From positions 1 through 40,249 of IMG/VR virus record IMGVR_UViG_3300046028_002417: a stretch of 40,249 bases of DNA; one strand, 5' to 3'. This DNA is from a virus. Below, piece by piece: positions 30,552 to 38,224 of the stretch (its first letter is position 1; each line of letters begins with the position of its first letter). A program made the position numbers and the translations under genes. The notes beneath the pieces were generated by a model. That model saw only the letters and a program-made list of their open reading frames with translations, made no database searches and was not told the DNA's origin.

Positions 30552-30625
30552 AGTGCGGTTAACATTGGCCGCCGTAACACCGGCAGCGTAGGGGTCGGTC
30601 CTCCGCTGACAAGACTGCGCCGACT

Positions 30626-30652
30626 GACCGCCGTAAGCGGTCGCCTATTTTT
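30626..30652 (+). terminator. Possible terminator or attenuator in the SSB leader
   Basis: A 6-bp perfect stem GACCGC/GCGGTC with a CGTAA loop is followed by GCCTA and five Ts (30648-30652). It is weak as a terminator because of the 5-nt gap but could act as an attenuator between the helicase and SSB parts of the operon. Confidence 0.4.
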
Positions 30653-30726
30653 CGAAAGCGCATGCTGTGCCAACTGACTGTGATAGCCGCCATTATCGGC
30701 GGCGCAGCGCACAGACGCAGCGAGTA

Positions 30727-30836
30727 GTGACAGCCGGGAAAGACCGGCTAGAAGCCGATAGTCGAAACTCGAACAAAACGAAAGGGACAGTAATAACCCT
30801 TGGTCGGAAAAACTGTGACAGCCGGGAAAGACCGGC
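30727..30836 (+). repeat. Two identical 22-nt hairpin repeats
   Basis: A 22-nt sequence (GTGACAGCCGG, then GAAAGA, then CCGGC) occurs at 30727-30748 and again, without mismatch, at 30815-30836. Each forms a GCCGG/CCGGC stem with a GAAAGA loop. The second copy ends 26 nt before the SSB-like ATG. Between them is another weak stem, AAGGG/CCCTT. The two copies fall in different reading frames, which argues for function as nucleic acid rather than protein. Confidence 0.85.
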
Positions 30837-30862
30837 ACTTTTAAACTAAACAGGGGCAGCAA

Positions 30863-31162
30863 ATGGCATCGAAAAAACTCTATGACCTTTCGGTCAAAAC
30901 CCGCGAGTACACCGACCGGGACGGTAAGAAAAAAGGCAACTGGCAGAACGTTGGCAGCGTCATGCAGGCCGATGACGGCAGCAAGTTCATCATGCTGAAC
31001 CGCTGGTTCAATCCTGCTGGCATTCCTGATCTGTCCGGCAAAGGCGGCGACAGTATCCTGCTGTCGATGTTTACGCCGAAGGATGGCCAGCCGCAGCAGC
31101 AGGCTGCACCGGCACAGCAACAACAAGCGCCGGCCTATGATGACCAGGACATCCCGTTCTGA
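30863..31162 (+). CDS. Single-stranded DNA-binding protein, non-canonical, with SSB-type C-terminal tip
   Basis: A 99-aa protein that is not a classic OB-fold SSB by sequence, but carries the features of phage SSB-like proteins: a compact beta domain (LYDLSVKTREYTDRDGKKKG, then WQNVGSVMQADDG), a Gln/Ala-rich linker and the acidic tip DDQDIPF. That tip matches the SSB C-terminal peptide that recruits replication and repair proteins. It is expected to bind single strands and work with the Sak4-like annealing protein. An AGGGGC Shine-Dalgarno precedes the ATG, and the leader carries twin hairpins. Confidence 0.8.
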   Translation: MASKKLYDLSVKTREYTDRDGKKKGNWQNVGSVMQADDGSKFIMLNRWFNPAGIPDLSGKGGDSILLSMFTPKDGQPQQQAAPAQQQQAPAYDDQDIPF

Positions 31163-34792: not shown

Positions 34793-34835
34793 GAATCACG
34801 CAGCATTGACTGCGGACTACATAACAGGGGAAAAA

Positions 34836-36158
34836 ATGAAATATCTGTCGGTCTGTTCCGGCATTGAAGCCGCGACTGTTGCATGGCATTCGCTAAGATG
34901 GAAACCAGCTGCGTTCTCAGAGATCGAAGCATTCCCGTCTGCTGTGCTGCAGCACCATTATCCCGACGTTCCGAACGTCGGCGACATGACTAAATTTAAC
35001 GAATGGAATTTCAATGAGCCAATTAAACTTTTGGTCGGTGGAACACCTTGCCAGTCATTTTCCGTTGCCGGACTCCGCAAAGGACTCGCAGACCCAAGAG
35101 GAAACCTTGCGCTTACGTATGTCGGAATTCTTGACAAGTTTAGACCCCAGTGGTGCTTATGGGAAAACGTGCCAGGTGTCCTCAGTTCAAACGGTGGACG
35201 GGACTTTGGTTCCTTCCTTGGGGCGCTGGTCGAAATCGGGTATGGGTTCGCATATCGAGTCCTTGACGCTCAATATTTCGGAGTGGCACAGCGACGCCGT
35301 CGTGTGTTCGTTGTCGGATATCTTGGAGACTGGCGACCTGCCGCAGAGGTTCTTTTTGAGCCAGAAAGCCTGCGCGGGAATCCTGCGCCGCGCAGAGAAA
35401 CGGGGAAAGAAATTGCCGGAACCTTTACGGCACGCGCTAGAAGCGGTGGTTGGGGATCAGACGTAGATTTGGCTGCTAGTAATTATATGCAGCCGGTAAT
35501 CAGCATGGCGCACGGCCAAGCTGGCGCAGAAATCCGCGTTGATGGCGGTGCGCCGACGCTAACCTGCAATCATGAAGCGCCGATAGTGGCCGGGACACTA
35601 TTAAAAGGCGGTAATTCTAATAACCCGATTGATGAAACCTTAATTCCTGCTTACGGCATCGCAGGAAACATTATAGAGCGCCAGCCGCAAAACGGCGGGA
35701 ATGGTCTGGGTTTCAGTGAAGAAGTTTCCTACACGTTGACCAAAACTGATCGGCATGGTGTGGCGCAGCCTGTCGGCGTAACGATCCACGGCACTGACGG
35801 AACCGTAAACGTCGCTTCATACACCGAACTGTCCAGCGCGTTGCGGTCACGCATCCCTAGTGGCGTGGAGAACAGCACAACTACTGCCGTGCAGCACGCT
35901 ATGGCCGTCCGCCGCCTAACCCCAGTCGAATGCGAACGCTTGCAGGGGTTCCCCGACAATTACACCAACATTCCGTGGCGCAAGCAGCCGACCGCACCGG
36001 ACAAGCCGCGGTACAAGGCGCTGGGCAATTCAATGGCCGTTCCGGTCATGGCGTGGATCGGCAAGCGCATCGCAATGGTTGATGCGATGCAGAATGCCAA
36101 TGACAACAACGCAGCCGCAAACAATAACCGTCCAGCCGCCGATGAGGCCGTTGCATGA
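34836..36158 (+). CDS. C5-cytosine DNA methyltransferase
   Basis: A 440-aa Dcm-type enzyme with motif I SVCSGIEAATVAW at residues 5-17, the catalytic PCQS (C72), ENVPG at 110-114, QRRRRVF at 152-158, a variable target-recognition part (about 185-360) and the C-terminal motifs LTPVECERLQGFPDNY and ALGNSMAVPVM. An AGGGGA Shine-Dalgarno precedes ATG 34836. It probably protects phage DNA from restriction. Between residues 60 and 210 codon use shifts to CTT/CTC and GGA, where another gene is overprinted (35014-35466). The C-terminus is Asn/Ala-rich. Confidence 0.93.
   Translation: MKYLSVCSGIEAATVAWHSLRWKPAAFSEIEAFPSAVLQHHYPDVPNVGDMTKFNEWNFNEPIKLLVGGTPCQSFSVAGLRKGLADPRGNLALTYVGILDKFRPQWCLWENVPGVLSSNGGRDFGSFLGALVEIGYGFAYRVLDAQYFGVAQRRRRVFVVGYLGDWRPAAEVLFEPESLRGNPAPRRETGKEIAGTFTARARSGGWGSDVDLAASNYMQPVISMAHGQAGAEIRVDGGAPTLTCNHEAPIVAGTLLKGGNSNNPIDETLIPAYGIAGNIIERQPQNGGNGLGFSEEVSYTLTKTDRHGVAQPVGVTIHGTDGTVNVASYTELSSALRSRIPSGVENSTTTAVQHAMAVRRLTPVECERLQGFPDNYTNIPWRKQPTAPDKPRYKALGNSMAVPVMAWIGKRIAMVDAMQNANDNNAAANNNRPAADEAVA
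35014..35466 (+). CDS. Overprinted gene within the cytosine methyltransferase gene
   Basis: A 150-aa frame, +1 relative to the methyltransferase, fully inside it and covering its PCQS, ENV and QRRRR motifs. The protein starts MSQLNFWSVEHLAS and ends with CSLSDILETGDLPQRFFLSQ, then KACAGILRRAEKRGKKLPEP. I recall the same ending in annotated hypothetical proteins near methyltransferases in other phages, which supports real coding, but this was not checked. Leucine is mostly TTG here. The upstream GGAAT may serve as a weak Shine-Dalgarno. Function unknown. Confidence 0.68.
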   Translation: MSQLNFWSVEHLASHFPLPDSAKDSQTQEETLRLRMSEFLTSLDPSGAYGKTCQVSSVQTVDGTLVPSLGRWSKSGMGSHIESLTLNISEWHSDAVVCSLSDILETGDLPQRFFLSQKACAGILRRAEKRGKKLPEPLRHALEAVVGDQT

Positions 36159-38224
36159 CCGCCGCCGACTTCAGAGCCGCCATGCAAGACGCTGGATATG
36201 AGCCGCCAGCCGATATCATTCCCGGCAAGTTCCATCGGTTCAGCGCCAACGGCAAGCGCCGTGACACTGCCGCATTTTGCAAGCTGTTCGATGACCTGCG
36301 CGGCGGAATATACGGCAACTGGCGCGAAGGCATCACGCATGAGTGGCAGGCCGCAAAGCCAGCCGCGATGTCGCCGGCAGAGCGCCAGGCGTACCGGGAC
36401 GCTGTCGCCAGAGCCAAAGCAGAGCGCGACGCTGAACAGGTACAGCTGGCAGCGGAAGCAGCCGCCAAAGCCGAAGCGATCTGGCAAGCCAGTGAGCCTG
36501 CAAACGACAATCACCCTTACCTGCAGCGCAAGCAGGTTCGTGCATACGCTATCCGGCAGAGCCGCGACGCGCTGGTTCTGCCGATCAAGGACAACGCTGG
36601 TCGGCTGCACAGCCTGCAGTTCATCCAGCCAGACGGCGAAAAGCGGTTCCTGACCGGCGGCGCGATCAAGGGACATTACACAGGCATCGGCAAGCCGCAG
36701 GGGCGCATCTATATCGCCGAAGGATATGCGACCGCAGCCAGCATCCACCAGGCAACCGGCGACGCTGTCGCCGTGGCGTTCAATGCCGGTAATCTTGAGC
36801 CTGTGGCGGTCAACCTGCGCGAACGCTTCCCAGACGCTGAGATCGTGATCGCCGCCGACAACGACAACCAGACGCCGGGAAATCCTGGCCTTACCAAAGC
36901 CGCCAAAGCCGCTACAGCGGCGCAGGCGACGGTCGTTGCGCCTGATGCTGGCGACTTCAATGACCTGGCCGTCAGCGATGGCGCAGAGGCCGTCAGCAGG
37001 GCATTGAAGCAGGTCACTGCGCCTGTTCCGGTCGCGGTCGACTACGTGTCGCCGCTGCCGGACTGCAACAGCAAAGGGTCGCCGCTGTCGACAATCGAGA
37101 ACCTGTCAGAGATCGTTCGCCGACTGAATGTGACCGTGCGTTACAACGTGATCAGCAAAGAGGAAGAACTGCTGATCCCGAACGCTGCGTTCAGCGTGGA
37201 CAACCGGCAGAACGCCAGTCTGGCCTGGCTGGCCAGCTGGTGCAGCCGCTTTCGGATGCGCACTGATAAGCTGGGCGACTATGTGACCTATCTGGCCGAC
37301 CAGAACCAATTCAACCCGGTCGCGCAGTGGATCACATCGAAACCATGGGACGGAGTGTCACGGCTGGCAGACCTATGCGCGACCATTACCAGCACCGACA
37401 ACGATCTGCGTGATGTCCTGATGAAACGCTGGCTGCTGTCGGCAGTCGCCGCAGCATTTAATCACGACGGCGTGTCTGCGCATGGCGTGCTGGTTTTGCA
37501 GGGCAGTCAGTACCTGGGAAAGACGAAATGGTTCAAACAGCTGGTTCCGGCGCATCTGGGCGTCGTGCAGGACGGAATGATGCTGCGACCAGATGACCGC
37601 GACAGCGTCAAGCAAGTCTGTTCGTTCTGGCTGGTCGAACTGGGCGAGATTGATGCGACGTTCAGGAAGTCTGACATCGCCGCTTTGAAATCGTTCATCA
37701 CGAAAAAGAACGACGTTTTGCGTCGGGCGTATGCGCGGAAAGAATCGACCTATGCACGGCGCACCGTCTTTTTTGGGTCGGTCAACCCGAAGCAGTTCCT
37801 GCATGACCCGACGGGAAACCGCCGGTACTGGACTATTGAAGCAACCAACATCGACCATTCGCACGACATCGATATGCAACAACTGTGGGCTGAAGTTCTT
37901 TCCATGTACCACGCTGGCGAAGGGTATTACCTGCTGCCGGAAGAAATGGACAGGCTGAACCATCACAATCAGGACTACAGCGTCAGCGATCCTGTGGTCG
38001 AGCGAATACAGACCAGACTGGACTGGGAAGCGCCAGAAACGCAATGGATATGGAAATCGGCGACCGAAGTCCTGATCGATGTCGGCGTTGACCGACCAAC
38101 GCAAGCCGACCTGACAAAGGCAAGCCAGGCAATTCGAGAGATGAACAAGGATCAAAGCCGGCGCACCAAAGTGTCACGACAACTGAAAGTGCCGCCATTG
38201 ATGCGTCAAGCAGCGCAGTGGTGA
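36155..38224 (+). CDS. Primase-helicase with Toprim and VapE-like domains
   Basis: A 689-aa replication protein. The N-terminal region (1-80) has a DNA-binding-like part, and 80-120 is a charged Ala-rich helix. Residues 180-260 form a Toprim domain with E189 in IYIAEGYATA and D235/D237 in IVIAADNDN. The C-terminal superfamily 3-like (VapE) helicase has Walker A GSQYLGKT at 450-457 and the Walker B-like WLVELGEID near 491. It probably primes and unwinds at the phage origin; repeats just after it (38222-38367) are a candidate binding region. GCATGACC overlap with the methyltransferase stop. Confidence 0.92.
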   Translation: MTAADFRAAMQDAGYEPPADIIPGKFHRFSANGKRRDTAAFCKLFDDLRGGIYGNWREGITHEWQAAKPAAMSPAERQAYRDAVARAKAERDAEQVQLAAEAAAKAEAIWQASEPANDNHPYLQRKQVRAYAIRQSRDALVLPIKDNAGRLHSLQFIQPDGEKRFLTGGAIKGHYTGIGKPQGRIYIAEGYATAASIHQATGDAVAVAFNAGNLEPVAVNLRERFPDAEIVIAADNDNQTPGNPGLTKAAKAATAAQATVVAPDAGDFNDLAVSDGAEAVSRALKQVTAPVPVAVDYVSPLPDCNSKGSPLSTIENLSEIVRRLNVTVRYNVISKEEELLIPNAAFSVDNRQNASLAWLASWCSRFRMRTDKLGDYVTYLADQNQFNPVAQWITSKPWDGVSRLADLCATITSTDNDLRDVLMKRWLLSAVAAAFNHDGVSAHGVLVLQGSQYLGKTKWFKQLVPAHLGVVQDGMMLRPDDRDSVKQVCSFWLVELGEIDATFRKSDIAALKSFITKKNDVLRRAYARKESTYARRTVFFGSVNPKQFLHDPTGNRRYWTIEATNIDHSHDIDMQQLWAEVLSMYHAGEGYYLLPEEMDRLNHHNQDYSVSDPVVERIQTRLDWEAPETQWIWKSATEVLIDVGVDRPTQADLTKASQAIREMNKDQSRRTKVSRQLKVPPLMRQAAQW

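What the first reader, a model, noticed from the sequence alone, without database searches (positions are those of the whole stretch)
30552..30862. Structured leader with twin identical hairpins before the SSB-like gene
This 311-nt non-coding stretch interrupts an operon whose other genes overlap by a few bases. It holds several GC stems and two perfect 22-nt copies of a GAAAGA-loop hairpin, the second 26 nt before the SSB-like ATG, plus a possible attenuator at 30626-30652 and a 12-codon leader frame. Some phage SSB proteins (T4 gp32) repress their own translation by binding upstream RNA, so a two-site translational operator is a reasonable idea. A small regulatory RNA or a processing site is also possible. 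No known family was recognised.
Basis: partly seen in the sequence, partly recalled or inferred. Interest (0 to 1): 0.68.

Follow-up and report, generated by a model that had tools for sequence, protein, structure and literature searches.

The report
Widespread undescribed phage RNA hairpin
The two identical hairpins upstream of this phage gene are not a private control site of that gene but two copies of a small RNA hairpin, absent from the public RNA-family library, that recurs with matching base changes in hundreds of unrelated phages, and whose job is still unproven.

Summary
The twin 22-nt hairpins are real (30727-30748 and 30815-30836). The exact 22-mer is also in 107 viral contigs and 26 bacterial genome contigs of several phyla. 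An unbiased pattern scan that leaves the stem free shows UGACA-[4 nt + G]-GAAAGA-[C + 4 nt]-A, with 88 of 122 hits fully paired (about 2% by chance), strong compensatory change, and G.U but hardly any A.C mismatches, so the plus-strand RNA is what is conserved. A GAGAGA-loop form is also common (98 of 118 paired). Nothing in Rfam 15 matches.

In the window, copy 1 ends a larger element (30654-30749) that has relatives in other phages: some begin a few bases after a promoter, others sit between a stop codon and the next gene. Relatives of the SSB-like gene lack the hairpins in front of it, so an SSB operator is unlikely.

Hairpins point with transcription. They lie just 5' of tRNAs (26 of 26 sense) and downstream of, and co-directional with, CI-like repressor genes (12 of 13). 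Best guess: an RNA antiterminator that works like HK022 put or lambda nut without being either (about 0.4). A processed small RNA or a processing/stability signal is the main rival.

The parts
30727..30748 (+). hairpin copy 1: UGACA 30728-30732, stem 30733-30737 with 30744-30748, loop GAAAGA 30738-30743
   Evidence: covariance model R1, 29.8 bits; T instead of A after the stem
30815..30837 (+). hairpin copy 2: UGACA 30816-30820, stem 30821-30825 with 30832-30836, loop GAAAGA 30826-30831, conserved A 30837
   Evidence: covariance model R1, 39.1 bits
30654..30749 (+). larger structured element ('class A') that ends in hairpin copy 1: GAAAGCG-CAUGCUG ... CAG-AC-GCAGCGAGUAGUGACA + hairpin
   Evidence: shared with L206, L209, L236, L269-L274; fold z -3.1
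30749..30840 (+). second unit: predicted closed domain (about 30755-30807) followed by hairpin copy 2
   Evidence: fold z -1.9; no relatives of the domain found, so weak
30625..30652 (+). terminator-like hairpin with T-run directly before the class A element
   Evidence: not above what shuffles give for the region as a whole
30863..31162 (+). downstream gene, 99 aa, small protein with SSB-type acidic tip (QDIPF); identity as SSB not confirmed

Best explanation
Shown: the leader carries two copies of a widespread RNA hairpin, UGACA-[5-bp stem closed by G-C]-GARAGA-A, of phages and prophages, and copy 1 is the 3' part of a larger element of about 96 nt that recurs in other phages. Inferred: it acts in cis on the transcription machinery. 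The RNA folds as it leaves the polymerase, and the invariant UGACA and GARAGA loop are held by RNA polymerase or by a factor common to most bacteria; the elongation complex then resists termination over the rest of the operon, here the replication genes from the SSB-like gene onward. That would make it work like HK022 put or lambda nut. The identity of the motif is close to certain (about 0.95); the confidence given is for the mechanism.
For: Motif: with a control pattern of the same size at 3 of 94 fully paired. RNA and strand: 16 G.U against 2 A.C where the other pairs are Watson-Crick, and sense orientation at every adjacent tRNA (26 of 26 downstream, 9 of 9 upstream). Place: CI-like repressor genes lie upstream and co-directional in 12 of 13 loci and never downstream within 3 kb, which is where lambda and HK022 keep nutL/putL; mEp390 shows the same in an annotated genome and P7641 by the search. 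Class A elements in L269-L272 and L274 start a few bases after a sigma-70 -10 box. Others sit at or near the head of operons or of untranslated runs: before terS in CS01 and ESP2949-1, before tRNAs, before DNA polymerase. The element is about as long as putRNA (~70 nt, two stem-loops; PMC9378689). The breadth of hosts argues for a universal host partner.
Against: No transcription data for any member. No sequence likeness to HK022 putL, found in L268. No boxA upstream (1 of 220). In the window the element lies after, not before, the one terminator-like hairpin, and no sigma-70 promoter was found in front of it. Terminators follow within 130 nt in only 15 of 193 loci, against 11 of 193 upstream and 25 of 965 random stretches. 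Some copies stand alone a few bases after a stop codon, and a closing stem before UGACA is not a general feature. The CI association was noticed after an all-against-all search, not predicted beforehand.
Confidence: 0.4

Rival explanations
1. The hairpin is the 3' end of a compact small RNA that is released from the long transcript (by RNase P where a tRNA follows) and acts in trans.
For: The hairpin abuts the next gene: 25 of 26 tRNA-linked hairpins end 3-12 nt before the tRNA. In Pseudomonas phages a conserved block ends at the hairpin while the sequence after it differs. Phage PAK_P3 makes abundant ~100-nt RNAs, one of them between its tRNAs, though those lack this hairpin.
Against: Some copies have no room for an upstream RNA, lying 7-9 nt after a stop codon (L016, L129, L144). 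The parts before the hairpin differ widely. Only 15 of 193 are followed by a terminator.
Confidence: 0.28
2. The hairpin is a punctuation mark in polycistronic phage RNA: a recognition or protection site for a ribonuclease that separates tRNAs, small RNAs and mRNAs and stabilises the new end.
For: It sits between adjacent functional units of every kind (stop codon to tRNA, tRNA to tRNA, tRNA to start codon) and in tandem arrays, with loop and flank fixed and stem free.
Against: tRNA arrays of 30 or more genes carry only one copy (L021, L057), so tRNA processing does not need it. No cleavage data.
Confidence: 0.22
3. A two-site translational operator bound by the SSB-like protein.
For: Copy 2 lies 26 nt before the ATG and the protein may bind single strands.
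Against: Same hairpin in front of unrelated genes; missing before the same gene in relatives.
Confidence: 0.04

Closest known systems
HK022 putL/putR antiterminator RNA
   Same: Phage leader RNA of about 70 nt with two stem-loops, at the start of the left early operon, no boxA; a universal host partner (RNA polymerase) would fit the breadth of hosts.
   Different: putL (L268) has no UGACA-GARAGA hairpin; polymerase binding untested here.
lambda-type nut site (boxA + boxB)
   Same: 5-bp hairpin with a purine-rich loop beginning with G and ending with A (from general knowledge of boxB), in the leader of the left early operon.
   Different: No boxA; loop is a hexamer; no N-like protein sought or known; occurs in tRNA arrays and far beyond lambdoid phages.
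Phage small RNAs near tRNA genes (PAK_P3 sRNA1/2; T4 band C and D RNAs as named in PMC4933390)
   Same: Short untranslated RNA beside or between phage tRNAs.
   Different: PAK_P3 RNAs lack the hairpin; T4 RNAs not tested here.

Membership tests
any Rfam 15 family | match at the gathering score | tested here: not met
   Only tRNAs and one RNase P RNA in the window and 56 hairpin-bearing loci; best match in the leader E 0.21, chance level
HK022 put | put sequence and structure | tested here: not met
   putL located by its promoter and primer sequence in L268; no UGACA-GARAGA hairpin there
HK022 put | located in the leader of an early operon | tested here: met
   CI-linked, co-directional in 12 of 13 loci; for the window itself the operon start lies about 2 kb upstream
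HK022 put | binds RNA polymerase and suppresses termination | not testable with these tools
   needs transcription assay
lambda nut site | boxA upstream of boxB | tested here: not met
   boxA-like string in 1 of 220 upstream stretches
lambda nut site | boxB-like hairpin bound by an N protein | not tested
   a similar small hairpin exists; no N-like protein was sought
SSB translational operator | site conserved upstream of the regulated gene in relatives | tested here: not met
   absent in L002-L008 and L010; after the gene in L011
the UGACA-GARAGA hairpin family described here | UGACA, 5-bp covarying stem closed by G-C, GARAGA loop, A after the stem | tested here: met
   copy 2 meets all; copy 1 has T instead of A after the stem

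The most novel reading that the evidence does not exclude
A new class of phage-borne RNA module, used by phages of many bacterial phyla, that acts through a universally conserved host factor (RNA polymerase, ribosome or a nuclease) in a way not yet described.
Probability: 0.4. Interest if true: 0.82.

Novelty: new variant of a known kind. Interest (0 to 1): 0.62.

Why it matters
A short RNA motif kept almost unchanged in loop and flank but freely covarying in its stem, across phages of Proteobacteria, Bacteroidota, cyanobacteria, Clostridia and others, points to a shared host target that phages exploit. If it is an antiterminator, RNA-only antitermination, known to me mainly from HK022 and its kin, would be a common phage strategy. 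If it is a small RNA, it is one of the broadest phage small-RNA families. Either way it can be tested with one reporter plasmid.

Tried and rejected
Rfam at gathering score and at E 10: only chance matches. HK022 put: no likeness. boxA: absent. PAK_P3 RNA-seq small RNAs: no hairpin. Literature search for the sequence itself and for phage RNA motifs: nothing found (open-access papers only, no preprints). Hairpin as 3' end of a terminated transcript: terminators follow in only 8%. A closing stem before UGACA as a general feature: not above control in the GAGAGA group (43 vs 43.4) and only slightly in the GAAAGA group (75 vs 60), so it is claimed only for particular subclasses. Chromosomal repeat such as REP: rejected, at most 5 copies in whole bacterial genomes and mostly none. 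DNA-level hairpin: disfavoured by G.U versus A.C. Likeness of GGAAAGAC to 23S rRNA (from memory): not pursued, since an 8-mer match comes up often enough by chance. SSB fold: model too weak to confirm. The control pattern was meant as the exact mirror of the search pattern but was typed with a different order; it still has 14 fixed bases and serves as a control of equal size.

Full report
Observation. Two perfect 22-nt copies of GTGACAGCCGGGAAAGACCGGC lie at 30727-30748 and 30815-30836 in the 311-nt gap before the ATG at 30863. The gap interrupts genes that otherwise overlap or abut. Each copy folds as a 5-bp stem with a GAAAGA loop. The fold excess of the leader is confined to its second two thirds. 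Identity to the other held copy of this virus is 100% over 3.9 kb, so it gives no comparative information.

The hairpin is not private to this phage. The exact 22-mer is in 107 IMG/VR contigs and 26 contigs of GTDB genomes titled Pseudomonas, Serratia, Paracoccus, Spirosoma, Clostridia, Planctomyces, Omnitrophota and others. Named phages carry it or a close form: Medea1, Pokken, ESP2949-1, Alexa, P7641, BUCT709 and mEp390. P1 has a variant with a longer loop between trnI and ban. Flanks differ. By chance a 22-mer is expected far less than once in such collections.

It is a covarying RNA hairpin. To avoid selecting for the stem, I scanned for TGACANNNNGGAAAGACNNNNA, which fixes only flank and loop. 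Of 122 distinct hits 88 pair at all four free positions (chance about 2%). On the unfiltered alignment 139 cells carry changes on both sides against 44 in shuffles, with a covariation score of 0.61 against 0.18, and every slid control falls to 0.15 or less. Where the other pairs are Watson-Crick there are 16 G.U but only 2 A.C mismatches (p about 0.001), which fits RNA of this strand. A GAGAGA loop form gives 98 of 118 fully paired, and a pattern of the same size with other letters gives 3 of 94. Other loops are rare among the loci at hand. The family is thus UGACA-[NNNNG]-GARAGA-[CNNNN]-A. From the share of known exact hits seen before the scan stopped (7 of about 92) I estimate about a thousand GAAAGA-loop contigs in IMG/VR; this is a rough extrapolation.

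It is not in Rfam 15: the window and 56 hairpin-bearing loci gave only tRNAs and one RNase P RNA.

Larger element in the window. Copy 1 is the end of a larger element shared with L206, L209, L236 and L269-L274: GAAAGCGGAUGCUG, a variable stem-loop, then CAG-NN-GCAGCGAGUAGUGACA and the hairpin. The inner helix UGC/GCA reads UAC/GUA in L236, with wobbles in L269 and L270 and one mismatch in L271, so its support is modest. In L269-L272 and L274 the element begins about 6-7 nt after a -10 box, that is, at the presumed transcript start. In L206 and three contigs like it, it fills the gap between the stop codon of an SSB-type gene (..DDDIPF) and the next start codon. No relatives of the domain between the two window hairpins were found.

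Not an SSB operator. Relatives of the SSB-like gene in L002-L008 and L010 have no hairpin nearby. Phage zth2-2 has one about 430 nt after the gene, behind another gene. Presence is sporadic, as for an exchangeable module.

Where it sits. Of 336 distinct hairpins, 26 lie within 30 nt upstream of a tRNA, 25 of these at 3-12 nt, and all are in the sense direction; 9 lie within 60 nt after a tRNA, all sense. The commonest neighbour family is a CI/LexA-type repressor, upstream and co-directional in 12 of 13 loci and never downstream within 3 kb, as for the left early operon of lambdoid phages. Annotated examples: mEp390 after the repressor; ESP2949-1 and CS01 before terS; Pokken and MD18 in tRNA clusters; an uncultured siphovirus before DNA polymerase. 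Bacterial genomes rarely hold it: 2 of 98 further Pseudomonas genomes, 1 of 147 further genomes of the phylum of Spirosoma and 0 of 148 further genomes of the phylum of the Clostridia locus.

Mechanism. Sense-strand RNA conservation, operon-head and leader positions, compactness and host breadth are what an RNA antiterminator would show, and HK022 put is the known precedent (PMC9378689). But putL itself lacks the hairpin, boxA is absent, and the window element follows rather than precedes the terminator-like site. I put antitermination at about 0.4, a processed small RNA at 0.28, a processing or stability signal at 0.22 and an SSB operator at 0.04. The steps shown are the existence, structure, strand and distribution of the motif; the function is inferred.

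Noticed in passing
L057 2904-3244 (-), IMG/VR contig of 46.7 kb: A contig classed as viral with a class A RNase P RNA (204 bits) among more than 30 tRNA genes; could be a phage-borne RNase P RNA or misbinned DNA.
   Followed up: no
L026, L037, L041, L095, L135 and other Pseudomonas loci, about 60-70 nt after the hairpin: A ribosome-binding site followed by a minimal start-stop frame (ATG-TAA, ATG-AAG-TAG, ATG-GAC-TAG), recalling minigenes that stall or sequester ribosomes.
   Followed up: no
L296, L300, L351, L353, L396, L397, L401, L402: GAGAGA-loop hairpins and related short elements, often in tandem, directly after one recurring gene whose product ends ..VVGNPLGLGKF...
   Followed up: no
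L269-L272 and L275, after the class A element: A second promoter-like site and a second structured RNA with its own T-run follow the first, suggesting a cassette of small RNA genes.
   Followed up: partly
L204, L235, L195, L193: Hits TGACAGC(A/G)CGGAAAGACGGCAA, counted as unpaired, would form a 4-bp stem with one bulged base, a possible bulged form of the hairpin.
   Followed up: no
window 34806-38224: C5-cytosine DNA methylase followed by a Toprim primase / VapE-like helicase fusion, overlapping by a few bases.
   Followed up: no
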